A stretch of DNA of 64,000 bases, taken from Chelatococcus sp. HY11 (GTDB lineage: Bacteria > Pseudomonadota > Alphaproteobacteria > Rhizobiales > Beijerinckiaceae). The first letter of the stretch is position 1; every line of letters starts with the position of its first letter. Shown piece after piece: positions 10,071 to 46,166 of the stretch. The stretch lies in assembly GCF_018398335.1 (NCBI RefSeq), contig NZ_JAHBRX010000002.1, positions 1,054,001 through 1,118,000 of the forward strand, written 5' to 3'. The notes below the pieces were generated by a model that made no database searches, was not told where the DNA came from, and was given only the letters and a program-made list of their open reading frames with translations. The position numbers and the translations under genes were made by a program.

Positions 10071-10085
10071 TAGAATTTTATTCGG
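10071..10085. promoter_or_regulatory. Palindromic operator, tctC promoter (site 1 of 7)
   Basis: TAGAATTTTATTCGG, a copy of the NCGAA-N5-TTCGG palindrome shared by seven intergenic regions in this window. It starts on the predicted -10 box TAGAAT (10071-10076), which lies 16 bases after TTGTCG (10049-10054), and ends 17 bases before the tctC start. A repressor bound here would block tctC transcription. The left arm is weaker than in the other sites (AG for CG). Confidence 0.55.
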
Positions 10086-10102
10086 CTTATGGGAGGGGTC
10101 AA

Positions 10103-11077
10103 ATGGGTGCGGACAATTTGCGTCGCGGCATGCTAGCTGCCGTTATCCTCATCTTTGGCGCAGCGCAGGTTCAGGCGAACAGCTACCCAACGCGGCCGGT
10201 GACGATTTCGATCGGCTACTCTGCGGGCGGTACGGTCGATATCGCATCGCGCATCATCGCGGACGATCTCACGAAGCGGCTGGGACAGCGCTTCCTGGTT
10301 GATAATCGGCCCGGCGCGAGTGGAATGGTGTCCGCCGACTATGTCGCGCGCGCGAAGCCCGATGGGTACACGATCGGTATGATCACGACGTCGCAACTCG
10401 GTACCAATCCGCATCTGTACAGCAAGATTGCCTATAAAGCGGCGGATTTCACCACCCTTGGCATGGCGGTCAAAGCGCCGATCGCTTTAGCCATCCCCAC
10501 CGCCTTACCTGTCAAGACGCTCCAGGAATTTCAGGCCTACGCGCAGCAACATGGCGCGCAAATGACCTACGGATCCTTTGGGCTGGGGACGAACGCTCAG
10601 CTCGTCACCGAAGTCATGAGCGACGCTCTTGGCATCAAGATGAAGCATGCGCCTTACGTCCAAGGGGCCATGGCCCGAACCGATCTCACCTCCGGCACCA
10701 TCCAGGCGCTCGTCGATTCAGTTGCCACCCTCGCTCCGCTTCACCAGGGTCAGCAGATCAGGATCATTGCCAATTTCGACGGGGAGCGTGCAGCCTCGTT
10801 GCCTGATGTCACGACATTCAAGGAGGCGGGCTTCAAGGACCTCGTTGCCTATACCTGGCTTGGCTTCCTCGCTCCAAAGGGGGTGCCCCCGTCAATGGTC
10901 GATACCTTCAACACCGCGCTCAAGGATTCTTTATCCGATCCTGCGGTAAAAAAACGCCTCCAGGATGCAGGATTCGTGGTGACATGGTCATCGCCTGCGG
11001 ACATGGCGGCTGAGATCAGCAGTGACTATGATCGCTGGGGGCCAGTCATTAAGCGCCTCGGCATCAAGCTTGACTGA
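10103..11077 (+). CDS. tctC: Tripartite tricarboxylate transporter substrate-binding protein TctC (Bug family)
   Basis: Periplasmic Bug-family receptor of 324 residues. Signal peptide about 1-25 (GMLAAVILIFGAAQVQA), then YPTRPVTISIGYSAGGTVDIASR and the motif VDNRPGASGMV, both standard for the family. The start at 10103 has a strong GGGAGGGG site four bases upstream; the frame begins earlier but without support. Bug proteins bind carboxylates; the aspartate usually contacting the ligand is consistent with the GGTVD loop. It is separated from tctBA by a divergent promoter region and preceded by one copy of the shared operator. Confidence 0.93.
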   Translation: MGADNLRRGMLAAVILIFGAAQVQANSYPTRPVTISIGYSAGGTVDIASRIIADDLTKRLGQRFLVDNRPGASGMVSADYVARAKPDGYTIGMITTSQLGTNPHLYSKIAYKAADFTTLGMAVKAPIALAIPTALPVKTLQEFQAYAQQHGAQMTYGSFGLGTNAQLVTEVMSDALGIKMKHAPYVQGAMARTDLTSGTIQALVDSVATLAPLHQGQQIRIIANFDGERAASLPDVTTFKEAGFKDLVAYTWLGFLAPKGVPPSMVDTFNTALKDSLSDPAVKKRLQDAGFVVTWSSPADMAAEISSDYDRWGPVIKRLGIKLD

Positions 11078-11574
11078 CGGCTTCAAGTACTATGAATGGC
11101 AGTGATACACGCTGACAATAGCTTGCAGATTCCGAGCTGATTGCGAGAACCTCAGTCTCACGCCCACTGATACCGCTCAAATTTCGACCGGCTGGATGTG
11201 CACGCTTAGTGACCGATCCAGCCGTGCAATTGAAGGTTGTATTTGTCCAATGCGTCGTATGTTACTTAGGAAAGCAACAGGACGCGAATTTGATGATAGA
11301 ATCTAATGATCGACGCGTTCTATCACTATATCTGCCAGCAGCTTCAGTAGGCCGTCAGGCGCTTCTTGGCTGCGGAGCGAATCGAAGCGCGGGTTGGCTC
11401 GAAGGACGCTTTGAGCCGAACGTCCGTCCCGTGCCTGCTCGCGGGTCGACTGAGCAGGCCTTGGCAGGCGCACGTGGATCCTAGGATATCCATTCTCCGA
11501 TGCGCAAGATCGGACCATCAACGGTCATCATTGAACTAGAACGTCGTATAATGATAGCTGGCGATACGCCCGCG
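11078..11574. other. Intergenic stretch with an inverted repeat; no convincing gene
   Basis: No coding frame here resembles a protein I recognise. After tctC there is a nine-base inverted repeat, CGGCTGGAT (11189-11197) and ATCCAGCCG (11216-11224), with an 18-base loop and no T tract; it may stabilise the tctC transcript end. The rest, up to the end of the TetR gene, looks like decayed sequence. Confidence 0.4.
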
Positions 11575-12267
11575 TTAATGCCCCAGCAGGGCCATCGTGC
11601 GATCGATAACCGAGCCCGTTACCTTCATGAGATCCCGCGGGCGTCGATAGATCAGCCATGTGATGATCAGCTGGTTCACGCTACCGTTCAGGATCGTCGC
11701 CGTCTCATAGGGATTGTGGCCGGAGGGCCACTCACCCGCCGCCTCGCCTTGGCGAATGAGGTGAACGATAACGCGCACATAGTCGTCGATCGCGTGGCGA
11801 ACTGTGGTTTCCCCTACGAGAACGCTTGGCCAAATCTCTAGATAAAGCGTGCGCGACCATTCCGGATTGCGGCGGGCGAAATCGGCCGCCAGCCAGAGAT
11901 AGAGCCGCAGGCGTTCGCGTGCCGTTGCCTTGCCGGCAACGGCTTCGGCATACTCGCTATAGAACCGGCCAAACACGCTGAGCGGCACAGCATAGGCGAG
12001 CTCCTCCTTGCCCGGGTAATACTCATAGATCGACGAGACCGGCATGCCAGCTTCCGAAGCAATATCACCGATCCTCGCACGGGAGATGCCGTCGCGTGCG
12101 AAGACACGCAACGCCGCCCGCAGAATCTCCTGTTCGCGACGCTTGGAACGATCCTGCTTGCGCTCTCCCGTATCGCCACTCCACCGATTGACGATATCGG
12201 CCAGAAAGTCGTCCCATGGGACAAGTGCTGTGACAGGCCCGCCGGCCTCATTAGTTTTCTTTAGCAT
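11575..12267 (-). CDS. TetR/AcrR family transcriptional regulator, candidate master repressor of the catabolic regulon
   Basis: One-domain-plus-ligand-pocket regulator of 230 residues from the ATG at 12267. The TetR N-terminal helix-turn-helix occupies about residues 45-90: EILRAALRVFARDGISRARI, GDIASEAGMPVSSIYEYYPG, KEEL. A tail of roughly 40 residues precedes the HTH, unusual for the family, so a later start is possible. The C-terminal ligand domain has YLWLAADFARRNPEW. An NCGAA-N5-TTCGG palindrome sits on its own predicted promoter (12359-12373) and on six other promoters in the window, so autoregulation and control of the neighbouring operons is likely. The ligand is probably a CoA ester or acid of the pathway (inference). 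Confidence 0.9.
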   Translation of the reverse strand: MLKKTNEAGGPVTALVPWDDFLADIVNRWSGDTGERKQDRSKRREQEILRAALRVFARDGISRARIGDIASEAGMPVSSIYEYYPGKEELAYAVPLSVFGRFYSEYAEAVAGKATARERLRLYLWLAADFARRNPEWSRTLYLEIWPSVLVGETTVRHAIDDYVRVIVHLIRQGEAAGEWPSGHNPYETATILNGSVNQLIITWLIYRRPRDLMKVTGSVIDRTMALLGH

Positions 12268-12358: not shown

Positions 12359-12373
12359 CCGAAGTTAATTCGG
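12359..12373. promoter_or_regulatory. Palindromic operator, tetR promoter (site 2 of 7)
   Basis: CCGAAGTTAATTCGG, arms fully complementary (CCGAA/TTCGG). On the minus strand it overlaps the predicted -10 TAACTT (complement of 12362-12367), 17 bases from TTGCTT (complement of 12385-12390). It is about 90 bases before the TetR start, where an autoregulatory operator is expected. Confidence 0.6.
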
Positions 12374-12618: not shown

Positions 12619-12633
12619 CCGAAAATTATACGA
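12619..12633. promoter_or_regulatory. Palindromic operator, thiolase-operon promoter (site 3 of 7)
   Basis: CCGAAAATTATACGA. The wider block from 12615, AAAACCGA..., is very close to that of site 7 (12615-12638 against 46148-46171), including the flanking AAAA and CTTTT. A TTGACA box follows at 12642-12647, with CATAGA about 18 bases beyond. It lies about 150 bases before the first gene of the 16-gene operon. Confidence 0.55.
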
Positions 12634-12779
12634 CTTTTAAGTTGACAGTCAGCACCCGCCGGCGACATAGATGAAGGCATGATCCGCTCGGCTCCCGAGA
12701 AAGGCGATCCGTCGGACAAGAAGAGACAGCTCCAAGCGCCACGCGTGGCCGCATTTCTGGATCTGCAAAGGGAACGCTC

Positions 12780-13898
12780 ATGACATTGGACCGGGTTGCC
12801 GTCGTTTCTTCGGCACAGACAGAGCTTCGCCCTGCCTGGAGCGGTGCGCAGCATATCGACCTGATCTCGGCGGTTGTGGCCCAGGTGTTCAAAGGCACCG
12901 GCCTCACTCTGGACGATGTGGACTTCGTCTTCGATTCCGGCAGCGATGTCCTCGACGGCCGATCAATTTCGAATTGCGGTTTTCTCGGCGCAATGGGCGC
13001 TCATCACAAAGAGGAATCGCGCGTCGAGGAGGACGGACTCTGGGCCGCCCAATACGGCGTGACAAAGATCGCCTCGGGTGCCGCACGCGTGGGACTGATC
13101 ATAGCTTATTCCAAGCCCTCGGAATCCGAAGTCAACGCATTCTACGCAAGCCAGTGCGAGCCCTTCTACCAACGCCCAGTCGGCTTCGATCACCGTGCCG
13201 CAAGCGGCCTGCAGGCCCAGCGCTATCTGGCGGACTCCAAACTTGACCTGAGCGCGCTGGCGCGCCTGACGCACCGACGCTGGAGCGATGCCGCTCAGCG
13301 CGGCAAGGTGTCAATCGACGCGGTTCCGGATGAAGCGGCAATACTCGGTGACGTCAACACCGCTGCGCCGCTCACGAAACTCATGATGTCACGGCCCATC
13401 GATGGGGCGGTGGCCGTCCTTCTCGCCTCGGAGGATATCGCCCGGCGCGCTGCGCGCCCGCCTGTGTGGGTGACAGGGATGGGCAGCGCCAGCGACCGGC
13501 ATGCCTTCGCCAGCCGGACGCCAGGGCGGCTCGAGGCCTGCGAGGCCGCCGCCTCCTCGGCGTTCAAGAGGGCTGGCTGGCTGGTGAAGGATGCAGGCCT
13601 TGCAGAGGTCAGTGCATCCTCGGCAGCATCCGAATTGATGGTGCTGGAAGCCCTCGGCCTGGCCAAGCCTGGCCAAGCGATTTCCCTTCTCGATAATGAC
13701 AGCACGGCGATCAATCGCTCGGGTGGCGCCCTGCCGGCCGATCCCATCATGGCCACAGGCCTCGTGCGGCTCGCCGAAGCCGCGCGGCAACTGAGTTACC
13801 CCACAGAGTACGGCCTGTCCTCTCCCACCTCGGCCATCGTGCATGGCGCCGGTGGCGTCGGCATGCAGTCGCACTGCGTCTTCACGTTGGAGGTCTGA
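12780..13898 (+). CDS. Thiolase-like protein, subunit 1 (no canonical active-site Cys)
   Basis: SCP2-thiolase-like fold, 372 residues. The segment that normally carries the acyl-accepting cysteine reads EEDGLWAAQYGVTKIASG (about residues 85-100), with no Cys, and the usual GHP motif reads ADPIMATG. The C-terminal glycine loop is HGAGGVGMQSH. Such changes are known in the thiolase-fold aldolases of steroid side-chain breakdown (Ltp2 type) and in non-catalytic subunits. It is the first gene of the operon, two bases before a second thiolase-like gene and upstream of an OB-fold partner, so a heteromeric complex is likely. Confidence 0.85.
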   Translation: MTLDRVAVVSSAQTELRPAWSGAQHIDLISAVVAQVFKGTGLTLDDVDFVFDSGSDVLDGRSISNCGFLGAMGAHHKEESRVEEDGLWAAQYGVTKIASGAARVGLIIAYSKPSESEVNAFYASQCEPFYQRPVGFDHRAASGLQAQRYLADSKLDLSALARLTHRRWSDAAQRGKVSIDAVPDEAAILGDVNTAAPLTKLMMSRPIDGAVAVLLASEDIARRAARPPVWVTGMGSASDRHAFASRTPGRLEACEAAASSAFKRAGWLVKDAGLAEVSASSAASELMVLEALGLAKPGQAISLLDNDSTAINRSGGALPADPIMATGLVRLAEAARQLSYPTEYGLSSPTSAIVHGAGGVGMQSHCVFTLEV

Positions 13899-13900
13899 TC

Positions 13901-15052
13901 ATGGCGCGTCACGTTGGAATTGTCGGCGTCGGCCAAACACATCATGCGCGCCGCCGCGTGGACGTCAGCCAGGCCGGCCTCGTGCGCGAGGCCGTCGACA
14001 GGGCGTTGGCCGATGCTAAGCTCACCATCGAGGATATCGACTCGGTAGTCGTCGCCACCGGACCGGTGCTCTTCGCGGCCGTCAACCAGCCGGAGAAATG
14101 GGTGGCGGATGCCATCGGCGCACGGCTGAAGCCCGTCGTCCGCGTCACCAGCGGCGGCGGCACCGGCCTCGCAGGCGCCCTCGCCGGCTATTATCAGATC
14201 GCTGGCGGATTTGCTGAACGCGTTCTTGTCGTCGCCTATGACAAGCTGTCTGAGGGTGCGCTGCAATACTCCATCTCCACACTCTATGATCCGTTCTGGG
14301 GCCGAGAGTTTGCGGTAGGCATCATGGGCTTCTCCGCCGCATACTGGCGGGCGCGGATGGATGTCCTCGGCCATACCGAGGAAGCCGCTGCCATGGTCGG
14401 GGTCAAGAATCGCAAGAACGCGATGAGAAACCCTTATGCGCATGTCAAAAAGGAAATCACTGTCGACGACGTTCTGAACTCGCGGCCCTTAGCCTGGCCG
14501 ATAAAGCTGCTCGATGTCCCGCCGATTTCAGACGGCGCTGCCGCCGTGGTTCTATCGTCCGAGAAAGCGGCCGCGAAGTCGACGGACCGTCCAGCTTGGA
14601 TCCGTGGCATGGGATATTTCTGCGAGGCGGATAACGCCGCGCAACGCTCCATGCTGGTTTCCGAGCCGCTGGCCATCGCCGCCCGTCGTATCTACCGGTC
14701 TGCTGGCATCACCAACCCGCGTCGGCAATTCGATGTCGTGGAAGTGCAGGAACCGTACACCTGCTTTGAGCTGAGCTACTATGAAAGCCTTGGTCTCTGT
14801 GCGCCTGGCGAGGCCGCGGAGCTGATCGCCTCCGGCGCAACGCAGATGGACGGTGACATTCCCGTCAATCCGTCTGGCGGCTGCGCGGGCGCCAATCCCA
14901 TCGGCGCGGCGGGCCTCATTCGCCTCATCGAAGGCGCAGCCCAGGTCATGGGCAAGGCTGGCGATATTCAAATTCCCAATGCGAAGCTCGCCCTCGTCCA
15001 GTCGGGGGGTGGCTGGGCCAATCTGCGCGGCGTAGCCGTGCTCAGCGCGTAA
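13901..15052 (+). CDS. Thiolase-like protein, subunit 2 (no canonical active-site Cys)
   Basis: SCP2-thiolase family, 383 residues, starting MARHVGIVGVGQT. Where thiolases place the nucleophilic Cys the sequence is VTSGGGTGLAGALAGYY (about 85-100), and the GHP box is replaced by GANPIGAAG (about 330). VVEVQEPYTCFELSYYESLGLC is the family segment before it, with tyrosines that could serve as acid/base as proposed for Ltp2-like aldolases. Upstream spacing is two bases; the OB-fold gene follows after ten. Probably acts on a CoA ester, by retro-aldol or Claisen cleavage, with subunit 1 and the DUF35-like protein. Confidence 0.88.
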   Translation: MARHVGIVGVGQTHHARRRVDVSQAGLVREAVDRALADAKLTIEDIDSVVVATGPVLFAAVNQPEKWVADAIGARLKPVVRVTSGGGTGLAGALAGYYQIAGGFAERVLVVAYDKLSEGALQYSISTLYDPFWGREFAVGIMGFSAAYWRARMDVLGHTEEAAAMVGVKNRKNAMRNPYAHVKKEITVDDVLNSRPLAWPIKLLDVPPISDGAAAVVLSSEKAAAKSTDRPAWIRGMGYFCEADNAAQRSMLVSEPLAIAARRIYRSAGITNPRRQFDVVEVQEPYTCFELSYYESLGLCAPGEAAELIASGATQMDGDIPVNPSGGCAGANPIGAAGLIRLIEGAAQVMGKAGDIQIPNAKLALVQSGGGWANLRGVAVLSA

Positions 15053-15062
15053 GGAGGAAGCC

Positions 15063-15992
15063 ATGCTCGCCATTCCCGACACTTGGGCCCAGGACCCGCC
15101 GACTTTCCCGAGCGACCTGTCGATGCCCTATACGCTAACCCCGGGGCGCGCCGCAGGAACGTTCGTCGCTGAGATCAAAAACCGACGCATCGTCGGGTCG
15201 CGGTTCGCCGGAGGAACCGTCGCGGTGCCGGCTCAAGACTTTTGCCCGAAGACCGGCGACAGCGATCCGGAACTGGTTGAGGCGCCGCATACTGGTACCC
15301 TTACCGGTTTCACGGAAACGGACGCGGGGATCATCGCCCTGATCCGCATCGACGGCTCCGACTTCGACATGACGCACCGCATTCTCGGAACGTCGCTCGA
15401 CAGCCTCCAAGTCGGCCAGCGCGTCGAGGCCGTCTGGGGCGACGGCGAAGGCATCCTCGCCATCGAAGGTTTCCGGCTCGCGCCGGACGCCCCGCGCGGA
15501 GAGATCCGCTCGTTGCCGGACGCCGCCAAGGCGGTCGAGCAGATACCCTACCACCTCAACCTTCACTACGAGCATGCGTTTGGTCCCTATTACGGTCGGC
15601 TGTTCGACGAGATCAAGACGAACCGCCGCATCATGGGCGTGCGCACATCCGATGGTGAGGGGGCCTTGCTACCACCACGTGAGATAGACGACCTCACTCA
15701 CAAGCCAACAGGAACCTGGGTGGAGCTGAAGCAAACCGGCACAGTGCGGGCGATGTCGGTGATCCATCTGGAATTCATCGGCCAGACCCAGCCGCCGCCC
15801 TATATCTATGCCGAAATCGTGCTGGATGGCGCCTCAACCCGGCTCATCCACAATGTCGGCGGCATCGACATGAGCCGCGCCAAGGAGCTGGTGAAGCCCG
15901 GCACGCGCGTTCGGGCCGTCTGGCGCGAGGGCGAGCGCACGGGGTCGCTCGCCGACATCTCGCATTTCGAGGTGATCGACGGCGAGGAATGA
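15063..15992 (+). CDS. Double OB-fold (DUF35-like) protein, thiolase partner
   Basis: Protein of 309 residues with two copies of a DUF35/OB-fold acyl-CoA-associated unit. Each copy has a linker like FVAEIKNRRIVGSRFAGGTVAVP (about 35-58) or DEIKTNRRIMGVRTSDGEGALLPPRE (about 180-205), then a beta-rich half ending in VGQRVEAVWGDGEG or PGTRVRAVWREGER. The zinc-ribbon cysteines usual in this family are missing except one (DFCPK). Single DUF35 proteins pair with one thiolase (for example BbsA with BbsB, ChsH2 with Ltp2); the doubled form next to two thiolase-like genes suggests one partner per subunit. No enzymatic residues seen. Confidence 0.8.
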   Translation: MLAIPDTWAQDPPTFPSDLSMPYTLTPGRAAGTFVAEIKNRRIVGSRFAGGTVAVPAQDFCPKTGDSDPELVEAPHTGTLTGFTETDAGIIALIRIDGSDFDMTHRILGTSLDSLQVGQRVEAVWGDGEGILAIEGFRLAPDAPRGEIRSLPDAAKAVEQIPYHLNLHYEHAFGPYYGRLFDEIKTNRRIMGVRTSDGEGALLPPREIDDLTHKPTGTWVELKQTGTVRAMSVIHLEFIGQTQPPPYIYAEIVLDGASTRLIHNVGGIDMSRAKELVKPGTRVRAVWREGERTGSLADISHFEVIDGEE

Positions 15993-16021
15993 CGATCCGG
16001 GGTGTTGGGAGGCTCGGAGCG

Positions 16022-16852
16022 ATGTTCGAAATCCATACGCTGAGGCTCGGCGAACTCATGATCCCGCAGGGCGAAGGCCTCCTGCGGGATCCGATACACG
16101 CCTGGTACGTGACGGACGGCATCACCCGCATCCTCGTCGATGTCGGCATGCCGACCGTCGAGGAAAACAGGCGGCGGCTCGGCATCAATGCTATCGGAGG
16201 CGGTCCGGAATCGCTCGTGCGCACCTTGGGCGAATGCGGCACGGAGCCTGGGGCCATCGATATCGTCATCGCCACACATCTGCATTTCGACCACGCCTGG
16301 AATCTTGATCTCTTTCCGCAGGCCTGCGTCGTGGTGCAACGCGACGAGGTGTTCCATGCGGTTGATCCGGTCGCGACGCAGAGGATCTACTATCTTCGTG
16401 AGACCCTGCTTAGCCTTCTCGCCCGCAAAAAGCCGTCCGGACTGCGGCTCGTCGATGGCGATCTCGACCTGATACCCGGCATCCGGCTGATGAAGGTGCC
16501 CGGCCATACGCCGGGCATGCAGGTGCCGATCATCAGCACGGCCAAGGGAAAGGTGGGGCTCGTCTCCGATCTTGGCGACCACTATCGATGCTGGTTTCCG
16601 GCGGATCCGCGCGCGACGGAAAGCCCCATGCGCTTCATGGCCGGCAGCTATCTCCCCGGCAGTATCCGCAGCGAGAGCGAGCGCGTCTATCAGGACAGCA
16701 TGGCACGCGTTGAGGCGGCTTGCGACATTGTCATTCCTGCGCATGATTTCCGCATTCCCAGCCATATTCCGGCGGAGTGGTTCGCAGTGCCGGCCTCCAC
16801 GGCTGGCGACCTCGGCCATGGCAAAGCGGACCATTCCAAGGCGGTGGAGTAG
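16022..16852 (+). CDS. Metallo-beta-lactamase fold hydrolase (N-acyl homoserine lactonase-like)
   Basis: Two-metal MBL-fold protein, 276 residues from ATG 16022. The HxHxDH motif is H86, H88, D90, H91 (THLHFDHAW); later ligands appear in PGHTPGMQ, SDLGDHY and IPAHDF. The overall length and layout fit AiiA-like lactonases, so it may hydrolyse a lactone or thioester intermediate. I favour 16022, preceded by GGGAGG, over an earlier ATG at 15989 that overlaps the previous stop codon. Operon context suggests ring or lactone opening. Confidence 0.85.
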   Translation: MFEIHTLRLGELMIPQGEGLLRDPIHAWYVTDGITRILVDVGMPTVEENRRRLGINAIGGGPESLVRTLGECGTEPGAIDIVIATHLHFDHAWNLDLFPQACVVVQRDEVFHAVDPVATQRIYYLRETLLSLLARKKPSGLRLVDGDLDLIPGIRLMKVPGHTPGMQVPIISTAKGKVGLVSDLGDHYRCWFPADPRATESPMRFMAGSYLPGSIRSESERVYQDSMARVEAACDIVIPAHDFRIPSHIPAEWFAVPASTAGDLGHGKADHSKAVE

Positions 16853-16855
16853 ACC

Positions 16856-18411
16856 ATGCCCAATCTGGCCGATCATCTCTTCCGCCAGGCCCGCGAGCGG
16901 CCCGATAAGGTCGCATTGATCTACGAGGGAGAGACTTGGACCTTTGCTCGCCTCGCGGACGCCGTGCGGCGCGTAGCGGGTGGCCTCATGGCGGCAGGTG
17001 TCGGCAGCGGCACGCGGGTCGGCCTGATGACGACGGCGAGGCCGGATTTCATCATCACACAACAGGCGATCTTTGCCCTGGGTGCGACGCTGACACCGCT
17101 CAACATCTTCTACAAGCGGGCAGATCTCGCCCATGTCATCACGAGTTGCGATCTCGAAGTCCTTATCATGGACGAGGGTTTCGTCGAGAACCTGCCGGAC
17201 GAGGCCGACTGCGGCGTGCTGCGCGCCATTCTCGTCTTCGGGCTGCCGACATCAACCCATCGACTCGCACCCGCAGACGGGCTGGAGTGGGCCGGGACCG
17301 CGCTCGACGAGCCGGTCGACCTGCCGGAAACAGCCATAGGCATGATGCTCAACACCTCGGCGACGACCGGCAAGGCCAAGGGTGTCCTGCTGTCGCTCGC
17401 CAATCTCCGGGCCAACTACGACCGGACGCCCGAATGGCTCGGGCTCGGCAGCAACAGCGTCATCCTCTGTGCCCTGCCGCTGTACAACACCTTCGGTCTT
17501 AACCAGGGCATCAATGCGCTGATGGTTACGGGCGGCACCATGGTGCTCCTGCCCCGCTTCGACGCGGACCGTTGCCTCGAGGCCATTGCCGCGCATCACT
17601 GCACATTTCTGCCGATGGTGCCGACTATGCTGCAGCGCATTGTCGATCATCCCGAAGCGGAGAAGCAGGATCTCTCCTCGGTCTCGCGCATCCTGACGGG
17701 CGCCGCGCCGGTGCCGGCCGCGCTGCTCGAACGCATCTATCGCGTCATGGGGCGCAACACGGTCGTGATGACCGCCTATGGGCTCACCGAGGCGTCCGCC
17801 ATCGTGACGCTGGAGCATATAACGCTCGCGCCGGACGGCCGCATCGAACGGCCGAAGTCGATCGGCAAGGTGCTGCCCGGCATGGAGGTCCGCATCCTGA
17901 CCGAAGATGGCCGCCCGACGACGGCGGGCGAGGTCGGAGAGATCTGCATCAAAGGCCCCAACGTCATGCAGGGCTATTACCGCCAGCCCGACGAAACCGC
18001 GGTCGCGATCCGCGACGGCTGGCTGCATTCAGGCGATCTCGGCTATTTCGACGCGGACGGCCATGGCTACATCGTCGACCGCAAGAAGGATGTGATCATC
18101 CGTGGCGGGCAGAACATCTATCCCGCCGACATCGAGGACGTGCTCTACCACGTCCCCGGCATCCGCGAGGTCGCCGTGGTCGGCCAGCCGGACGAGAAGC
18201 TGGGAGAGGTGCCGGTCGCCTATGTCTCGCTGCAACCCGATTGCCATCTCACCGCCGACGCATTGATCGATCGCTGCAAGCGGGAGCTTGCCTACTACAA
18301 GGTGCCGGCCGCCATTCACTTCCTGGCGGAACTGCCGAAGGGGCCGACGGGCAAGATCCTGCGCCGCGGCCTGAAATCGCCAGCCGCCACCTCTTCCTCA
18401 GGAGTTACGCC

Positions 18412-18415
<4 letters not shown>
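16856..18415 (+). CDS. AMP-dependent acyl-CoA synthetase/ligase
   Basis: ANL-superfamily ligase of 519 residues. P-loop-like motif LNTSATTGKAKG (about 164-175, a variant of SGTTGxPKG), the TAYGLTEA motif near 305, the YHSGD-equivalent GWLHSGDLGYFD, hinge DRKKDVIIRGGQNIYP and C-terminal GPTGKILRR with the adenylation lysine. It forms an acyl-adenylate then a CoA thioester in the cytosol. It starts four bases after the hydrolase and overlaps the next gene by four, in the main operon. Likely activates the acid delivered by the Liv importer. Confidence 0.92.
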
Positions 18416-19200
<785 letters not shown>

Positions 19201-19202
19201 AC

Positions 19203-20393
19203 ATGGACTTCACCTACAGCCCCGAGGATATCGCCTTCCGCGACGAGTTGCGCGGATGGCTCGCCACCAACCTCCCGCAGGGGTGGGGCGAGACCGTCTT
19301 CCTGCCGGAGGACGAGGACGAGAACGCCATGTTTCGCCTCGACTGGGAGCGCAAGCTCTACAAAGGCGGCTGGAACGGCATTGCCTGGCCCAGGGAGTAT
19401 GGCGGACGCGGCGCCACACTGATTGAGCAGGCCATTTTCGCCGAGGAGATGGCACGGGCCAAGGCGCCCGAAGGGCTCAACATCATCGGTCGCAACCTGG
19501 TCGCCACTACCCTGCTCCACCACGGCTCGGACGCCCAGAAAGCCCGTTTCCTACCCAAGATCATCTCCGGCGAGGAGGTCTGGTGCCAGGGCTTCTCGGA
19601 GCCCAACGCCGGTTCTGATCTCGCGGCGGTACGTTGCCAGGCCGTGCGCGACGGCAACCATTTCGTGGTCAACGGCCAGAAGATCTGGACGAGCTTCGCG
19701 CAGTATTCGCAATGGTGCATTCTGCTGGCACGCACCGATCCGTCCGCGCCCAAGCACAAAGGCATCAGCTTTCTTCTCGTTGACATGAAGACGCCGGGAA
19801 TAACCATCCGGCCGCTGCGCCAGATTTCCGGCGAATGCGAGTTCAACGAAACATTCTTCGATGATGTCCGCGTGCCCGTAGAGAACCTCGTCGGCGAACT
19901 GAATGGCGGCTGGCGCATCGCCATGACGACGCTCGCCTATGAGCGTGGCCCGGAGGATGCGCTCGGGCGTCAGCTCGTGTTCCGGCAGGAGCTCGACCAG
20001 CTCCTCGCTACAGCGGCCAAGCTCCAGCGCGGTAACCAGACCGCCATCGAGGACAGCCTGCTGCGCCAGAAGCTGGCGAAGTCTCTCGTCGCCATCGAGA
20101 TCATGCGGCTGAACTGCCTGCGTGCCTTCTCGAAGAGTCTGAAGGGCGCCCCGCGCGGGGCGGAAGCCTCCATGAACAAGCTCTACTGGAGCCACGTCAT
20201 GCAGGACATGTTCGACACCGCCATGGAGGTATTGGGGCCGCTCGCGCCGCTGACGGCCGGCGATGCGCGCGCCGTGGACGGCGGGCGCTTCCAGCTCGCC
20301 TTCCTGCGCTCCAAGGCCTTCACGATCTACTCGGGCTCCTCCGAGATCCAACGCAACATCATCGCCGAGCGCGTGCTCGGCCTGCCCAAATAG
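19203..20393 (+). CDS. Acyl-CoA dehydrogenase, subunit 1
   Basis: FAD-dependent acyl-CoA dehydrogenase, 396 residues. FAD/substrate motif WCQGFSEPNAGSDLAA is at about residues 125-140, KIWTSFAQYSQWC at about 160. LAYERG near 245 could hold the catalytic glutamate as in isovaleryl-CoA-type enzymes, and the C-terminus has IYSGSSEIQRNIIAERVLGLP. The adjacent second dehydrogenase gene suggests a heteromeric enzyme of the kind described for steroid side-chain degradation. Electrons would go to ETF. Confidence 0.92.
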   Translation: MDFTYSPEDIAFRDELRGWLATNLPQGWGETVFLPEDEDENAMFRLDWERKLYKGGWNGIAWPREYGGRGATLIEQAIFAEEMARAKAPEGLNIIGRNLVATTLLHHGSDAQKARFLPKIISGEEVWCQGFSEPNAGSDLAAVRCQAVRDGNHFVVNGQKIWTSFAQYSQWCILLARTDPSAPKHKGISFLLVDMKTPGITIRPLRQISGECEFNETFFDDVRVPVENLVGELNGGWRIAMTTLAYERGPEDALGRQLVFRQELDQLLATAAKLQRGNQTAIEDSLLRQKLAKSLVAIEIMRLNCLRAFSKSLKGAPRGAEASMNKLYWSHVMQDMFDTAMEVLGPLAPLTAGDARAVDGGRFQLAFLRSKAFTIYSGSSEIQRNIIAERVLGLPK

Positions 20394-20401
20394 GCCCGGT
20401 C

Positions 20402-22560: not shown

Positions 22561-23444
22561 TGTTGGACGTCCCGCAACCGCATGTCCCATCACGCCGCGA
22601 GACCGTGGAAGTCCGCGGTCTTCGCTATGCCGTCCGTCGCTGGGGCCGTGACAATGCCCGGCCGCTCCTGATGGTCCACGGCACCCGTGAGTCATCGATA
22701 ACCTTTCAGTTCGTGGTGGACCATCTGCGGGATGATTGGCAGGTGATCGCCCCTGACTGGCGCGGCCACGGGCATTCGGACCGCGCCCAGTCCTATTGGT
22801 TCCACGATTTCGTCGGTGATCTCGCCGTCCTTGTCGAGCGCCTGTTCCCCGCGCAGGCTGTGCCGCTCGTCGGTCATAGCCTCGGCGGCAATGTCGCGGG
22901 CATATACGCCGGGCTGCGGCCGGAACGCATCTCGCATCTCGTCTCGCTCGACGGCTTCGGCCCGCTCGTCGACCATGTCCCGGTGGATCCCGTCGCCCTG
23001 TTGCGGCGGCATATTGAGGCCGGGGAGCGCCAAGGCCGCGCCTATCCCGACATTGCGACGATGGCGGCACGCCTGCGACAGGCCAATCCACGGCTCACGC
23101 AAGGGCAGGCGATGCTGCTCGCCGAGCATTCCAGCGCGGAAGGCCCGGACAGACAAAGACGCTGGCTCTATACGGGCGGCTTCCAGCGCTCGCTGCCATC
23201 GTTGCGCACGATGGCAGAGTGGGGGCGGCTATGGGCCGGGATCACAGCTCCCGCCCTTTGGGTGATGTCCGAGGATACCCGCCCGAACGCCCCGGTGCGC
23301 TTTCCCGCCGAGATCGAGCGCCGTGCCGCTCTGATGCCGCGCCTCGAACGCCGCCAGATCCCGGGCACCAGCCACAACCTGCACCATGACGAGCCAGCCG
23401 TCGTCGCAAAGCTGATCGAGGATTTCATCAGCAGACCACCATGA
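22557..23444 (+). CDS. Alpha/beta hydrolase
   Basis: Serine hydrolase fold, 295 residues. Oxyanion region MVHGTRESS, nucleophile elbow VGHSLGGNVAG near residue 105, and a C-terminal histidine in TSHNLHHDEP. Possible roles are hydrolysis of a C-C bond, an ester or a thioester in the pathway. ATG codons at 22557 and 22560 are both possible. A 70-base gap to the following livH includes a mini reading frame. Confidence 0.88.
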   Translation: MMLDVPQPHVPSRRETVEVRGLRYAVRRWGRDNARPLLMVHGTRESSITFQFVVDHLRDDWQVIAPDWRGHGHSDRAQSYWFHDFVGDLAVLVERLFPAQAVPLVGHSLGGNVAGIYAGLRPERISHLVSLDGFGPLVDHVPVDPVALLRRHIEAGERQGRAYPDIATMAARLRQANPRLTQGQAMLLAEHSSAEGPDRQRRWLYTGGFQRSLPSLRTMAEWGRLWAGITAPALWVMSEDTRPNAPVRFPAEIERRAALMPRLERRQIPGTSHNLHHDEPAVVAKLIEDFISRPP

Positions 23445-39078: not shown

Positions 39079-40467
39079 TTACTCATTGAGTTGCGCCCTC
39101 GCCCATCCGCCTCCTGCCATCGAGGCAAGCGCGAAGGGGCCGCCGAGATAGGCGGGGAATCCGAGTTCCGCCACGACAGCGTAGTCGGCCATCTGACGGT
39201 CCGCCTCGGCCAATCCCGCGCCATGGGCCTCCGCGGCGAGAACCGCGCGGGACAACAGCCGCGCGGCCCGTACCTGCCAGCCAGCGGAAGGGGCGTCGAT
39301 CCATAAACCCGTCGCCTGGGCCGATGTCGGTGGCGTAAAAGAGGGCGGAGGTACGAGCGTCGGCCGAGGAACGCGTCCGACGCCATCCCGCAAAGATGGC
39401 AGAGGTTTCGTGAAACCCGCGTGAACGGCGGCGGGCTCGGCCAGCGCCCGTCCCATGCTGTCCGCTTCGAAAGCGAGCGCCCGGCCGACATCCTCGACCA
39501 GCGGCGCCAGCCAGCTAGGCAGGCCGTTGTGTTTCGCCGCGCGCTGAAAAGCCTGCCGGCCGTGAAACAAGGTTGCCACCATCGCCCATGGCTCGGGCCG
39601 CAGGAGAAGCCGCGAAAGAGCCTCGATTTCCACCGCATTGGCCCGATCCATCGGAACCGACAGCCCCCGTTCAAGGCAATCGAGAATGGCCGTGACAGCC
39701 GGATAGTGTCCCTGGGCCTCGGCTTCGCGCTCCTGCCGGAAGGCAGCCAGTCGTGCCGGAGAGGGCGCGGGTACCCCGCCCGGGCAATCCCAGCGCGGGA
39801 GCCAATCCGGCCCGCTCTCCAGCCATGCGACTGCCTCCGCGACGGTCTTTCCCGGCGCTGCGAGCGCATCGGCGGCGCCCGCCGCGACGGCCGCTTCCGC
39901 CGACAGCCATGTCCCGTCGAACAACATGGGAACGGCGGCATCCAGCCCGATGAGGCGCGGAAGGCGCTGTGTGCCGCCACCGGCTGGAAAGAGACCGACG
40001 GTGATCTCCGGCAGGCCGAGGGTGGCTGCGCCGCCGTCCGCCATGACCCGCCAATGCCCGGCGAGCGCCAGCTCGCAGCCGCCACCCAACGCCGGGCCTT
40101 CGATCGCCACGGCGATCGGCACGCCCGCCGTCTCGAGACGGCGGAAAGCGCGCGTGAAGGGGGCGAATCGGGCATGCAGGGCGGCGAAGCGATCGTCCGG
40201 CGCAGTCGCCGCAACCATGCCACGGATCGCTTCGAACTCCGCAAGGTCGGCGCCGGCGCAGAAACCGCTCGCCTTGGCCGAGGATAAGACGAGGCCTGCG
40301 AGCCCACTTTCGGGCAGCCAGGCGGCGATCCGCTCCAGATCGGCGAGCGCCGCCGCGCTGAGAACATTCACCGTCCGCCCCGGCGTATCGAAGACGAGAT
40401 GCCCGATCGCCGGCTTTGCCATCTCGAAGCGGAAATGATCGAGCTGGGGAGGTGCTTTCACGGTCAT
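39079..40467 (-). CDS. Enoyl-CoA hydratase domain with FadJ-like tail, lacking the 3-hydroxyacyl-CoA dehydrogenase domain
   Basis: Protein of 462 residues. Residues about 1-200 are a hydratase with both glutamates (GGGCELALAG and LGLPEITVGLFPAGGGTQRL). Where FadJ/FadB proteins continue into an NAD-binding Rossmann fold, no GxGxxG is present; the last 60 or so residues (ADYAVVAELGFPAYLGGPFA) instead match the end of the dehydrogenase C-terminal domain. It therefore looks like a FadJ protein with an internal domain lost. Start ATG 40467 has GGAGCAGG upstream; a longer frame reaches 40515. Second gene after the cleavage enzyme on the minus strand. Confidence 0.83.
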   Translation of the reverse strand: MTVKAPPQLDHFRFEMAKPAIGHLVFDTPGRTVNVLSAAALADLERIAAWLPESGLAGLVLSSAKASGFCAGADLAEFEAIRGMVAATAPDDRFAALHARFAPFTRAFRRLETAGVPIAVAIEGPALGGGCELALAGHWRVMADGGAATLGLPEITVGLFPAGGGTQRLPRLIGLDAAVPMLFDGTWLSAEAAVAAGAADALAAPGKTVAEAVAWLESGPDWLPRWDCPGGVPAPSPARLAAFRQEREAEAQGHYPAVTAILDCLERGLSVPMDRANAVEIEALSRLLLRPEPWAMVATLFHGRQAFQRAAKHNGLPSWLAPLVEDVGRALAFEADSMGRALAEPAAVHAGFTKPLPSLRDGVGRVPRPTLVPPPSFTPPTSAQATGLWIDAPSAGWQVRAARLLSRAVLAAEAHGAGLAEADRQMADYAVVAELGFPAYLGGPFALASMAGGGWARAQLNE

Positions 40468-40575
40468 GATCCTGCTCCGCTCTCGGCAGGTTGAGCACGC
40501 TTCTGCAGCGAGCATGCGGCCGGGCCGGGCCGGCCGAGCGCATGGCCGGTGGCACCGGAGGTCTCGGGCGATGCG

Positions 40576-41508
40576 CTAGAAGCCCACTTCGTCGCCGCCC
40601 TTGGTGCCCAGCATGGCGCGGGCCTCTTCCGGCGTTGCGATTTCGAGGGAGAGTTCCTCCAGAATGCGCCGGCTTTTCGCGACCAGCGCGGCGTTGGACG
40701 GCGCCAGTTCGCGCTTGTTGAGGAACAGGTTGTCCTCAAGTCCGACGCGGACATGGCCGCCGAGAATGGCCCCCATAGTCGTGAAGGGGATCTGGTAGCG
40801 ACCGGCGGCGAGGATCGACAGATAATAGTCGTCGCCGAACAGGCGATCGGCGGTCGCCTTCATCGACATCAGGTTCTCCGGTTCCGGCCCGATGCCGCCG
40901 AGCACGCCGAATATCGCCTGCACGAAGAACGGCGGCTTGACGATGCCGCGCTCAGCGAAATGCGCGAGATTGTAGAGATGGCTCGTATCATAGCATTCGA
41001 ACTCGAAGCGCGTGCCGAGATCGCCGAGCTCCAGCATGGCCCGCTCGATCTGCGCGAAGGTGTTCGGCATGATGTAGTCTTTGGTATTCTCCAGATACGG
41101 CTTCTCCCAGTCATGCTTGAACGCGGTGATACGGGCCGTCGCGCCGGAGAGATTGAAGTTCATCGAGCCCATATTCATCGAGGCGAGCTCGGGCTTCGCC
41201 CATTTCGCCGCGCTCAGCCGTTCGTCCATGCTCATGCCGAGCCCGCCACCCGTCGTGATATTCACGATGGCGTCACAGGCCTGCTTGATCTGGGGAAGGA
41301 ACAGGCGGAAGGCATCGGGCGACTGCGTCGGCTTCGCCGTCTCCGGGTCACGTGCGTGCAGATGCAGAATGGCAGCGCCCGCGCCGGCCGCCTCGATCGC
41401 CTGTTGGGCGATATCAGCCGGAGTGACGGGCAGATGTGGCGACATCGAAGGCGTATGGACCGAACCAGTCACGGCGCAGCTGATGATGACCTTTTTCGAG
41501 CGTTTCAT
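40576..41508 (-). CDS. Beta-keto acid cleavage enzyme (BKACE, DUF849; 3-keto-5-aminohexanoate cleavage-like)
   Basis: Zinc-dependent TIM-barrel enzyme of 310 residues. The N-terminal strand VIISCAVTGSVHTPSMSPHLP and the metal motif ILHLHARD (HxH, about residues 47-54) are characteristic, with TTGGGLGMS near 85. The family condenses a beta-keto acid with acetyl-CoA to give acetoacetate and a new acyl-CoA. ATG 41508 has AGGAGGAAG upstream. First gene of a minus-strand unit under the palindrome at 41708-41722; the acetoacetate produced would suit the CoA-transferase at 42.3 kb. Confidence 0.92.
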   Translation of the reverse strand: MKRSKKVIISCAVTGSVHTPSMSPHLPVTPADIAQQAIEAAGAGAAILHLHARDPETAKPTQSPDAFRLFLPQIKQACDAIVNITTGGGLGMSMDERLSAAKWAKPELASMNMGSMNFNLSGATARITAFKHDWEKPYLENTKDYIMPNTFAQIERAMLELGDLGTRFEFECYDTSHLYNLAHFAERGIVKPPFFVQAIFGVLGGIGPEPENLMSMKATADRLFGDDYYLSILAAGRYQIPFTTMGAILGGHVRVGLEDNLFLNKRELAPSNAALVAKSRRILEELSLEIATPEEARAMLGTKGGDEVGF

Positions 41509-41707
41509 GGTGCTTCCTCCTGTCGTGCCCAAAGGCGCCTCTCCGTATTGCGAAGCGATGTATCACGGTGATTGTCGAGCGCCCGGAACTGCGGCAAGGC
41601 AGCCGATCTTAGCGCGTCCGGCCGCTAGTCCTCCGCGCCATGTGCGCCATGGCCAATCAACCCAATCACGGTGACACATTACCTTGCTCACCTCGCTGGC
41701 GTTGAAA

Positions 41708-41722
41708 CAGAATTATATTCGG
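41708..41722. promoter_or_regulatory. Palindromic operator, cleavage-enzyme promoter (site 6 of 7)
   Basis: CAGAATTATATTCGG. On the minus strand TTGCAA (complement of 41733-41738) is 17 bases from TAATTC (complement of 41710-41715), and a TATAAT is read two bases upstream of that; the operator covers this -10 region. It lies about 200 bases before the gene start. Confidence 0.5.
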
Positions 41723-43944: not shown

Positions 43945-44928
43945 TCAGGGGATTTCTACGACGCATTTGCCCCTGTGCTGGCGAGACAGGATATGGTGAT
44001 AGCCCTTCGCTGCATCCTCGAAGGCGAACACCTCACCCGCCCGTGGATTGAGTCGACCTGTGTGGATCCAGTCAAGCATTTCACGAAGGTCCGCCCAGCC
44101 CTCGTCGTGGCCGCGCAGCAGCCCCAGCCTAGCTTCCACCCCGATCACGGATACCATTTTAACTAGCATGACGTTCGTGCGGGCCAACGCGGGGCGCCCC
44201 GACGTGAACCCAACGACAAGGATGCGGCCGCCAGGTGCTATGGCTCGCATGGACAGATCAAAGAGGTCACCGCCGACCGGGTCATAATACACGTCTGCAC
44301 CGATGCCGCGGGTCAGTTCGAGCACGCGATCGCGCAATGGCTCGGTGTTGTAGTTGATGACGTGATCGGCGCCCTCGACATCGGCCAGGCGCACATCGCT
44401 TCCGCCTGTCGCAATGACCCGCGCTCCGAGTTGTTTGCCGATCTCAACCGCAGTTGAACCCACGCCGCCCGTGGCGCCATGCACCACCAACGTCTCGCCA
44501 GCCTTAAGATAACCACGCCGGACGAGAGCATTGAATGAGGTCCAATAGTTCATCACTGACGTGGCTGCGTCCGAGAAGCTCAGCCGTTCCGGGCACGGAA
44601 ATACAAAGGCCTGCGGCATGACGCTATACTCGGCCAGTGCGCCGCCACGCATATCGACGGCGAATACCATGACGCGGTCGCCTGGGACGAATTTCGTTAC
44701 CCCCTCGCCGCAGCTGTGCACAACACCGGCGCTTTCATTTGATGGAATGTACGGCAGCGGTGGAATCTGCTGGTAGGTACCGTCAAAGATGAGGGTCTCG
44801 CCATAGGCGAGGCCTGCGGCGTGATTGCGGATCAGGATCTCGCCCGGGCCCGGCACAGGTTGCGGAAGCTCCGTCATCTCGAGTTCGAACGGCTTGGAAA
44901 AACGCCTTAGCACCCAGGCCTTCATCAT
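43945..44928 (-). CDS. Quinone oxidoreductase-type NADPH dehydrogenase (MDR superfamily, zinc-free)
   Basis: Medium-chain reductase of 327 residues without zinc ligands. Early strand MKAWVLRRFSKPFELEM, NESAGVV motif near 70, nucleotide fold GATGGVGSTAVEIGKQLGARVIA near 150. It reduces a double bond or quinone using NADPH. It overlaps the CaiB gene by four bases and follows it in one operon. Two adjacent ATG codons (44928, 44925) are possible starts. Confidence 0.92.
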   Translation of the reverse strand: MMKAWVLRRFSKPFELEMTELPQPVPGPGEILIRNHAAGLAYGETLIFDGTYQQIPPLPYIPSNESAGVVHSCGEGVTKFVPGDRVMVFAVDMRGGALAEYSVMPQAFVFPCPERLSFSDAATSVMNYWTSFNALVRRGYLKAGETLVVHGATGGVGSTAVEIGKQLGARVIATGGSDVRLADVEGADHVINYNTEPLRDRVLELTRGIGADVYYDPVGGDLFDLSMRAIAPGGRILVVGFTSGRPALARTNVMLVKMVSVIGVEARLGLLRGHDEGWADLREMLDWIHTGRLNPRAGEVFAFEDAAKGYHHILSRQHRGKCVVEIP

Positions 44929-46103
44929 GGCGCTCCCTCGCTATCCGAGCCGAGTTCAGCCCGAATCGCCGGGCCGTCGGCACCCAGTTCCGGCGCGTGC
45001 CGGCGGAGCCCGGCAGGTGTTGCAGAGAAGCGCGCCGGATGTGCCGGCTGCCGATAGGGCCCGACCACCGGATGGTCGTATTCAGCGACTGTTCCGGCCG
45101 CTATAACCTGCGGATCATTCAGAATATCGTCTGGCCAGTTCACCGGAGCATAGACCGCGTCGACAGTGGCGAGGCGGGCCAACCATTCCGCTGTAGAGCG
45201 GGTCAGTAGCCGGTCACCAACCACAGCATTCAGTTCCGCGGCATTGGCGAAGCGTTGGCCGAGCGTCTTAAAGCGCGGGTCGTCCAGCAGTTCGGGGCTC
45301 TCCAGCGCCTCGCAGACGGCCTCGAATTCGCTGGACGTCACAAAACCAAGAATGATGTGCCCGTCGGCGGTGGGATAACAGTAGCGCGTGCCGGCGACCG
45401 ACCCTCCGGGCTCGACATCTCCGCCTGCGAGAGTACTGCTTCCCATAGTTTCGGGCCACAGAAACGCCAGAGCCGCATCGAGCATGCTGACCTGGATGTG
45501 CTGGCCCTTGCCCGTGCGCTCGCGCACCAGCAAGGCGGCAGTTACGGCTTGGAAGACGAAGAGCGCCGTGACCTTATCGGTGACAGAATTCCGAACGACT
45601 TCCGGTTTTCGCGTTACTGGGTCGGCCTGGATGCCGGCAAACCCCGCGATGCCTTGCACAACGATATCGTAAACACGACGGCCAGCAGCAGGACCGCTCC
45701 GCCCGAGGCCATCAATCGATACATAGACGATGTCTTCGCGAACTGATCTCACAGCTTCGTAGCCCAAGCCGAGCCTGTCAATGACACCTGGGCGAAAATT
45801 CTGCACAACGACATCGGCGCTAGCCGCGAGCGCCAGCGCGACCGCGCGGTCATCAGGTTGCTTGAGATCGAGTACAATCGATCGCTTGTTGCGGTTCGCA
45901 TTAAGGAACATGCTGCCCATTCCGGACACGGCCGCCCGGCGATCTCCTGAACCGCGCAGCTGGTCGCCAGCAGGGGTCTCCACCTTGATGACATCAGCGC
46001 CTTGGTCGCCCAACAGCATGGTCGCAATTGGTGCTGTCAGGTTGCTGCCAAATTCGACAACGCGATAGCCGGCGAGAGGACCTTTGTCCGTCATCATTCT
46101 CAC
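44925..46103 (-). CDS. CaiB/BaiF family CoA transferase
   Basis: Class III CoA-transferase of 392 residues. GYRVVEFGSNLTAPIATMLLGD and ADVIKVETPAGD open the protein; the catalytic aspartate is in RRVYDIVVQGIAG (about residue 145). It moves CoA between acyl-CoA and a free acid without ATP. Operator site 7 lies 49 bases before the start at 46103. First gene of a two-gene operon with the quinone oxidoreductase. Confidence 0.93.
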   Translation of the reverse strand: MRMMTDKGPLAGYRVVEFGSNLTAPIATMLLGDQGADVIKVETPAGDQLRGSGDRRAAVSGMGSMFLNANRNKRSIVLDLKQPDDRAVALALAASADVVVQNFRPGVIDRLGLGYEAVRSVREDIVYVSIDGLGRSGPAAGRRVYDIVVQGIAGFAGIQADPVTRKPEVVRNSVTDKVTALFVFQAVTAALLVRERTGKGQHIQVSMLDAALAFLWPETMGSSTLAGGDVEPGGSVAGTRYCYPTADGHIILGFVTSSEFEAVCEALESPELLDDPRFKTLGQRFANAAELNAVVGDRLLTRSTAEWLARLATVDAVYAPVNWPDDILNDPQVIAAGTVAEYDHPVVGPYRQPAHPARFSATPAGLRRHAPELGADGPAIRAELGSDSEGAP

Positions 46104-46151
46104 GTCCCATCCTCCAAGCCGCTCTGCAGAAAACCGCCAAACCTCATAAAA

Positions 46152-46166
46152 CCGATAATACTTCGG
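46152..46166. promoter_or_regulatory. Palindromic operator, CaiB-operon promoter (site 7 of 7)
   Basis: CCGATAATACTTCGG. On the minus strand TTGACC (complement of 46175-46180) is 17 bases from TATCGG (complement of 46152-46157), so it overlaps the -10. The surrounding AAAACCGA and CGGCTTTT are shared with site 3. Confidence 0.6.

What the first reader, a model, noticed from the sequence alone, without database searches (positions are those of the whole stretch)
10071..46166. Shared palindrome NCGAA-N5-TTCGG on seven promoters: a TetR regulon for an unknown catabolic pathway
Seen directly: 10071 TAGAATTTTATTCGG, 12359 CCGAAGTTAATTCGG, 12619 CCGAAAATTATACGA, 30673 TCGAAGTTTATTCGG, 30874 ACGAAAATAATTCGG, 41708 CAGAATTATATTCGG, 46152 CCGATAATACTTCGG. 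All are intergenic, all lie in front of catabolic or transport units (or tetR), and six of seven overlap a plausible -10 box. One copy sits on the promoter of tetR (11575-12267), the usual autoregulation. Together they would place about 30 genes under one repressor.
Basis: partly seen in the sequence, partly recalled or inferred. Interest (0 to 1): 0.88.

Follow-up and report, generated by a model that had tools for sequence, protein, structure and literature searches.

The report
TetR operator controlling a catabolic island
A short two-fold symmetric DNA signal is repeated in front of the operons of a catabolic gene island in a Chelatococcus bacterium, it is also found with the same TetR-family regulator gene in several other genera, and it is best explained as the switch by which that regulator controls about 33 genes of a still unknown breakdown pathway.

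Summary
All seven sites exist (30874 is really 30873) and an eighth, 41794 CCGAATTTTTTCCGG, was missed. The bare pattern is not rare (35 matches at up to 1 mismatch, 41.7 expected). With its AT-rich centre it is: 8 intergenic places reach 16.9 bits, against 0.07 per shuffle, and each site ranks first when left out of the matrix. Elsewhere in the genome matches do not exceed the control. The sites are kept at the same genes in C. asaccharovorans, including one operon that lies elsewhere there, and occur beside orthologues of this tetR in Enterovirga, G079, a Rhizobiaceae MAG and G353, the last found by the thiolase alone. So a TetR regulon is well supported; binding is untested. New: two promoter geometries. 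In 10 of 12 transport, amidohydrolase and hydratase promoters the operator begins 27-29 bases after the start of TTGAC, on the -10/+1 region, as for a repressor. At the main operon it lies just upstream of TTGAC (gap 7-9, invariant CTT, 9 of 9 genomes), an activator-like or UP-element position. Kind: a new TetR catabolic regulon, like KstR or BkaR. Substrate unknown.

The parts
11575..12267 (-). tetR: TetR-family regulator, 230 aa, N-terminal TetR_N helix-turn-helix
   Evidence: PF00440 46.1 bits, scanned as the longer ORF 11575-12396; orthologues 48-93% identical; AlphaFold2 pLDDT 84.6, nearest solved folds B. subtilis FadR
10071..10085 (.). operator TAGAATTTTATTCGG, about 18 bases before the called start of tctC
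   Evidence: 20.8 bits; counterpart TGGAATTATATTCGG before tctC of C. asaccharovorans; called intergenic
12359..12373 (.). operator CCGAAGTTAATTCGG, about 92 bases before tetR (presumed autoregulation site)
   Evidence: 21.6 bits; identical in C. asaccharovorans
12619..12633 (.). operator CCGAAAATTATACGA of the main catabolic operon
   Evidence: 18.1 bits; counterparts at a fixed distance from TTGAC in 9 of 9 genomes
12642..12646 (+). TTGAC, presumed -35 of the main catabolic operon, 8 bases after the operator; invariant CTT at 12634-12636
30673..30687 (.). operator TCGAAGTTTATTCGG of the amidohydrolase unit (minus strand)
   Evidence: 20.5 bits; identical in C. asaccharovorans; TTGAC starts 29 bases upstream on the minus strand
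30873..30887 (.). operator ACGAAAATAATTCGG of the livK2-oadA unit
   Evidence: 20.2 bits; identical in C. asaccharovorans; TTGAC starts 27 bases upstream
41708..41722 (.). operator CAGAATTATATTCGG between the divergent BKACE and CoA-transferase genes
   Evidence: 21.9 bits; identical in C. asaccharovorans
   Evidence: 18.7 bits; 14 of 15 bases kept in C. asaccharovorans
46152..46166 (.). operator CCGATAATACTTCGG of caiB-qor (minus strand)
   Evidence: 17.0 bits; identical before the orthologous operon on another contig of C. asaccharovorans, the only identical 15-mer of 143; TTGAC 14 bases upstream in both
10103..11077 (+). tctC-type solute receptor
   Evidence: PF03401 224 bits; gene call
12780..28827 (+). 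main operon (extent inferred from strand and gaps), 16 genes: thlA, thlB, OB/DUF35, metallo-beta-lactamase fold, acyl-CoA ligase, enoyl-CoA hydratase, two acyl-CoA dehydrogenases, Zn dehydrogenase, alpha/beta hydrolase, livHMGF, livK, EthD
28814..30655 (-). amidohydrolase (29612-30655) and enoyl-CoA hydratase 2 (28814-29602)
   Evidence: PF04909; PF00378
30956..39053 (+). livK2, livH2, livMG fusion, livF2, accB, accC, OadA-like carboxyltransferase
39079..41532 (-). FadB-like enoyl-CoA hydratase and beta-keto acid cleavage enzyme (BKACE, 40576-41532)
   Evidence: PF05853 343.6 bits
42266..43680 (+). 3-oxoacid CoA-transferase subunits A and B
   Evidence: TIGR02429 and TIGR02428 above cut-off
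43945..46103 (-). CaiB-type CoA-transferase and PIG3-type quinone oxidoreductase
   Evidence: PF02515 366.6 bits

Best explanation
The palindrome CCGAA-N5-TTCGG with an AT-rich centre is the operator of the TetR-family protein encoded at 11575-12267. Without its ligand the dimer sits on eight operators and holds down tetR itself and the rest of about 33 genes in eight presumed transcription units; the ligand, most likely a CoA thioester made from the substrate, releases it. Shown: the sites, their statistics, their conservation, and that they go with this tetR. Inferred: binding, the ligand, the unit boundaries, and repression where the operator lies on the -10/+1 region. At the main operon the operator sits directly upstream of the presumed -35, so there the protein may activate, or block an UP element; this is open.
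For: Leave-one-out: 8 of 8 sites first in the window; shuffles 0.07 against 8; no excess over the control in the rest of the genome. Conservation: identical 15-mers at 6 of 8 sites in C. asaccharovorans, 13 and 14 of 15 at the others, while the aligned intergenic DNA is 41-69% identical; caiB-qor lies on another contig there and its site is the only identical 15-mer of 143. Association with tetR: operator-CTT-TTGAC composite in 5 of 5 tetR-bearing and 8 of 293 tetR-lacking family genomes (the pattern was written after seeing the first promoters); the same-genus genomes without tetR, G015 and G055, show 14 and 19 matches of the palindrome against 24 and 25 for the control. Out of sample: G353, found by its thiolase, has tetR beside the operon, and its only two matrix hits of 11 bits or more in 20 kb lie in the tetR-thlA gap. 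Geometry. Fold nearest FadR, with the stearoyl-CoA complex 3whc first.
Against: No binding or expression data. With the window matrix the main-operon site scores only 6.1 bits in L019 and less than 9.1 in L022, not above control tiles; these two are recognised by the core and by the TTGAC distance. L018 (TetR 71%) and L023 (48%) show no site of 12 bits or more; L018 is cut inside the main operon and on the 4.2 kb of L023 no island gene but tetR was found. Three of nine other promoters tested show nothing: Rhizobiaceae ECH2, G353 ECH2 and EntMAG tetR. The five tetR promoters with a site show no TTGAC at a fixed distance. In C. asaccharovorans other 15-mers near the sites are identical too (36 of 498, 22 of 241 and 20 of 719 in three of the five alignments). 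In the second island of G198 sites occur on a contig without a TetR relative. The window also holds a LysR gene, 60060-60920, about 14 kb from the nearest site.
Confidence: 0.88

Rival explanations
1. The palindrome is the site of another regulator, perhaps an unlinked one, and tetR is only one of its targets.
For: Sites occur in a second island of G198 on a contig without a TetR relative (the orthologue lies on another contig of that MAG). Other regulators exist, for instance the LysR gene at 60060-60920; I did not search the orthologous loci for further regulators. Binding is untested.
Against: The composite goes with this tetR in 5 of 5 against 8 of 293 genomes, and tetR lies beside or near the main operon in the loci compared. 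The rest of the genome shows no excess of sites, as a local regulator predicts.
Confidence: 0.08
2. Dual regulator: the same TetR protein represses where its operator lies on the -10/+1 region and activates the main catabolic operon, where the operator centre lies near -52. This is a variant of the best explanation, not exclusive of it.
For: Gap of 7-9 bases and invariant CTT between operator and TTGAC in 9 of 9 genomes, and gaps of 7 and 5 with CTT at two promoters of a second island in G198; TTGAC occurs at 0.00066 per position in control loci. LuxR, a TetR-fold protein with DNA complexes titled 'repression' and 'activation' (7amn, 7amt), is among the fold matches.
Against: No transcription start is mapped and the TTGAC is only a presumed -35; a dimer just upstream of -35 may also repress by covering an UP element.
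Confidence: 0.3
3. The similar palindromes are a chance of AT-rich promoter DNA.
For: The bare core is no commoner than chance in the window.
Against: Shuffles of the same intergenic DNA reach 16.9 bits 0.07 times against 8; each site is recovered by the other seven; conservation across genera.
Confidence: 0.01

Closest known systems
KstR (Rv3574) regulon of mycobacteria
   Same: TetR-family protein, short palindrome, autoregulated, many units of lipid catabolism; at its own promoter the motif partly overlaps the -10 region (passages of PMC1995591)
   Different: Operator there TnnAACnnGTTnnA; this protein scores 23 bits against the KstR cut-off of 280; other phylum and gene set
BkaR (Rv2506) regulon
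   Same: Local autoregulated TetR with a palindrome and, in M. tuberculosis, a scoA target (passages of PMC3920632)
   Different: Operator core GTTA(N)T(N4)A(N)TAAC; 10 genes in M. smegmatis
FadR of Bacillus subtilis
   Same: Nearest solved fold, TM 0.73-0.74 over the model, with an acyl-CoA complex; best NCBIfam hit 57.4 bits
   Different: Cut-off of that model is 200 bits; 22-23% identity

Membership tests
TetR family of transcriptional regulators | N-terminal TetR_N helix-turn-helix | tested here: met
   PF00440 46.1 bits, cut-off 24
TetR family of transcriptional regulators | All-helical fold with C-terminal ligand and dimer domain | tested here: met
   Ten predicted helices, pLDDT 84.6; the best PDB matches are TetR-type regulators such as FadR, KstR and MtrR
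TetR family of transcriptional regulators | Binds a palindromic operator as a dimer and is released by a ligand | not testable with these tools
   Needs purified protein; only site statistics and conservation were computed
FadR (Bacillus type, NF053878) | Reaches the curated cut-off of the family model | tested here: not met
   57.4 bits against 200
KstR (NF033703) | Reaches the curated cut-off of the family model | tested here: not met
   23 bits against 280
Local autoregulated TetR catabolic regulon (KstR/BkaR kind) | Same palindrome at its own promoter and at neighbouring catabolic operons | tested here: met
   Eight sites including 12359 before tetR, conserved in C. asaccharovorans
Local autoregulated TetR catabolic regulon (KstR/BkaR kind) | Targets derepressed when the regulator is lost | not testable with these tools
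   No expression data

The most novel reading that the evidence does not exclude
A TetR subfamily that I found no description of, with operator CCGAA-N5-TTCGG, uses two fixed promoter geometries: operator on -10/+1 at transport and hydrolase units (repression) and operator-CTT-(4-6 bases)-TTGAC at the main catabolic operon (activation or UP-element control). It serves a CoA-dependent pathway whose thiolase-fold protein ThlB has lost the thiolase cysteine and probably acts as a lyase with its DUF35 partner.
Probability: 0.3. Interest if true: 0.58.

Novelty: new member of a known kind. Interest (0 to 1): 0.42.

Why it matters
It assigns an operator, and so a testable regulon of about 33 genes, to a rare pathway (close relatives of its thiolase-fold protein ThlB, E up to 1e-120, in 2 of 385 genomes drawn from the class, one of them this one) whose substrate is unknown. 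The regulator's ligand would be a direct way to that substrate, and the two geometries make a sharp test of whether one TetR protein both represses and activates within one pathway.

Tried and rejected
The bare-core search of the own genome (100 places against 145 for the control) lists only its first places and gave nothing but the counts. Possible extra targets in the own genome: C1:797577 (no mismatch) lies in what reads as a LysR coding sequence (my gene caller began that gene too late and called the place intergenic). C2:1015146 scores 12.1; the caller calls it intergenic, but the DNA printed reads to me as the coding end of a cytochrome oxidase subunit. The two remaining intergenic hits (L135, L136) were read and not assigned to a target; the genes beside them were not identified. 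In C. asaccharovorans C22:31776 (no mismatch) falls between called genes in DNA that reads to me as a cupin-like coding sequence; not counted as a site. One extra composite match in G353 (C48) has no site of 11 bits or more in its 10 kb. Plasmid records hold no TetR relative at 1e-20. Solved structures gave only general relatives for ThlB, ThlA, the ligase and the amidohydrolase and none for the OB protein, so the substrate was not found.

Literature (open-licence full texts only; listings seen unless said): TetR with Chelatococcus and thiolase, 1 review; four TetR/palindrome/activator terms, none; TetR regulons in alphaproteobacteria, 1 paper, not opened; Chelatococcus asaccharovorans, 8 papers, not opened; TetR activators, 2 and 9 papers, not opened; TetR with ccgaa, ttcgg and palindrom, 153 papers of which 12 were listed and two opened for passages, BkaR and KstR; DUF35 aldolases, 5 papers, one opened for passages. 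In what I saw there was no description of this regulon.
Full report
Setting. The window is G000:C2:1054001-1118000 of a 6.95 Mb genome. So I take the host for a Chelatococcus species and G087 for C. asaccharovorans.

Observation. The seven 15-mers are present; one start is off by one and an eighth site lies at 41794. The bare palindrome core is no commoner than chance. The AT-rich centre makes the motif specific: the sites score 17.0-21.9 bits, the next best place in the window 12.3. Each site, left out of the matrix, outranks every non-site position, 8 of 8. Shuffled intergenic DNA reaches 16.9 bits 0.07 times on average in 300 shuffles, against 8. In 72 control loci (1.25 Mb; L024-L095, distant TetR relatives) 6 places reach 16 bits; 4 of these 6 are in Firmicutes records, two of them Paenibacillus.

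Rest of the genome. CCGAANWWWNTTCGG at up to one mismatch: 18 places, control 16; 6 of the 18 in the window. Of the 12 others, 9 lie in genes as called by my script and one in a LysR gene that the script began too late; two are intergenic. GAANWWWNTTCGG without mismatch: 16 hits, control 10; 6 of the 16 hits, from 5 places, in the window. Two patterns are not a full matrix scan, but they show no excess outside the island. The two same-genus genomes without tetR, G015 and G055, show 14 and 19 matches of the first pattern against 24 and 25 for the control.

Conservation. In C. asaccharovorans the eight sites are kept at the same genes: six identical, 10071 13 of 15, 41794 14 of 15, in intergenic alignments that are 41-69% identical; other identical 15-mers exist in three of the five alignments. 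The genes run in the same order up to the end of contig C3, but caiB-qor lies in the middle of another contig, C9, beside genes that match none of the window proteins compared, with an identical site; it is the only identical 15-mer of 143 in that alignment. Orthologues of TetR (48-93%) were found in a Rhizobiaceae MAG, a Sterolibacteriaceae MAG, a Rhodospirillales MAG, Enterovirga (two records), a proteobacterial MAG and an Acetobacteraceae MAG and in G079; the next hits fall from E 1e-65 to 6e-14.

With the window matrix frozen, the DNA upstream of the main operon in seven genomes outside Chelatococcus (two of them Enterovirga) gave best scores of 22.6, 22.6, 18.2, 17.1, 16.0, 9.1 and 6.1 bits; the first five are reached by 0 of 5479, 0 of 5711, 1 of 3837, 3 of 2791 and 6 of 2505 control tiles, the last two (L022, L019) by 166 of 2672 and 552 of 4185. 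In G353, G079 and the Rhizobiaceae MAG this best hit is the site nearer tetR or its operon; the site next to the main operon scores 16.9, 14.0 and 10.5. Nine other promoters, most chosen after sites had been seen there, gave 22.6, 20.2, 16.7, 12.6, 12.5 and 11.1 bits in six and nothing in three (Rhizobiaceae ECH2, G353 ECH2, EntMAG tetR). L018 and L023 show no site of 12 bits or more; the first is cut inside the main operon, the second holds only tetR of the genes compared. G353 was found with the thiolase protein; its tetR lies beside the operon and its only two hits of 11 bits or more in 20 kb are in the tetR-thlA gap. It is the clean out-of-sample case.

Association with tetR. CGAW-N7-CGACTT-N3-6-TTGAC occurs in 13 of 298 genomes of the family: in all 5 that hold the TetR orthologue, each at the main operon promoter, and in 8 of the 293 that do not. 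The pattern was written after the first of these promoters had been seen, so the comparison is partly circular. A looser form of it gave one extra match each in G198 and G353 and one control match in G087. The G353 promoter was read after the geometry had been seen elsewhere.

Geometry (38 site-promoter rows). Of 12 liv, tctC, amidohydrolase and ECH2 promoters with a site, TTGAC starts 27-29 bases before the operator in 10 (4 in the two Chelatococcus, 5 elsewhere, 1 in the second island of G198); the two without are tctC of the Chelatococcus pair. This places the operator on the end of the -10 box and the start of transcription, a repressing position. At caiB of both Chelatococcus the offset is 14, in the spacer. 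At the main operon the order is reversed in 9 of 9 genomes whose promoter I had: operator, CTT, 4-6 further bases, TTGAC (gap 7-9). If TTGAC is the -35, the operator centre is at about -51 to -53. In the Enterovirga MAG G198 a second catabolic island repeats both geometries: gaps of 7 and 5 before mmgE and caiB, offset 28 before livK. That contig has no TetR relative at E up to 0.1, the MAG is 61% complete, and its mmgE was found in 1 of 298 family genomes, itself: a lead, not proof. No TTGAC was found near the site for tetR (5 of 5) or for the BKACE/CoA-transferase sites; Rhizobiaceae maoC has an offset of 36 and citE of G198 of 38.

Regulator. TetR_N is present. No NCBIfam model reaches its cut-off; the best is Bacillus FadR, 57.4 of 200 bits. 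The AlphaFold2 model (pLDDT 84.6, nine sequences) is nearest to B. subtilis FadR, with and without stearoyl-CoA, with KstR, MtrR and LuxR further down. An acyl-CoA ligand is therefore the natural guess, not a result.

Pathway. The controlled units hold an acyl-CoA ligase, two acyl-CoA dehydrogenases whose nearest models are PimC and PimD (both below cut-off), enoyl-CoA hydratases, a Zn dehydrogenase, hydrolases of three folds, a biotin carboxylase set with an OadA-like subunit, a BKACE, CoA-transferases and two Liv transporters. ThlB has Gly where two solved thiolases (7yvy, 6hsj) have a Cys, and Asn for the His of the GHP motif, as I read the printed alignments (the roles of these residues are recalled). 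With its OB/DUF35 neighbour this recalls the aldolases Sal and Ltp2, which associate with DUF35 partners (passages of PMC11321319). The substrate is unknown.

Verdict. It is a new member of a known kind (KstR, BkaR: passages of PMC1995591 and PMC3920632). What goes beyond is the pair of conserved geometries, which leaves open that the protein activates its main operon.

Noticed in passing
13901-15052 and 12780-13898: Two thiolase-fold proteins beside an OB/DUF35 protein; ThlB lacks the thiolase cysteine by alignment, and no Cys stands in the usual region of ThlA as I read it: perhaps a C-C lyase rather than a thiolase. ThlB is about 90% identical outside the genus while its operon neighbours are mostly 43-80%.
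   Followed up: partly
L154 (G198:C28:11000-30000): A second catabolic island with the same operator and both promoter geometries, without a TetR relative on the 43.6 kb contig.
   Followed up: partly
39079-41532: A beta-keto acid cleavage enzyme beside a CoA-transferase pair, divergent over two operators 86 bases apart; which operator serves which gene is open.
   Followed up: partly
2001-12000: G+C of 0.54-0.57 (0.58 in 1-2000) against 0.61-0.67 for the rest of the window, with the tctABC region in it: possibly a separate acquisition.
   Followed up: no
46423-49542: Cytochrome c and a molybdenum hydroxylase pair next to caiB-qor, without a site of their own.
   Followed up: no
60060-60920: A LysR-type regulator gene in the same window, about 14 kb from the nearest site.
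   Followed up: no
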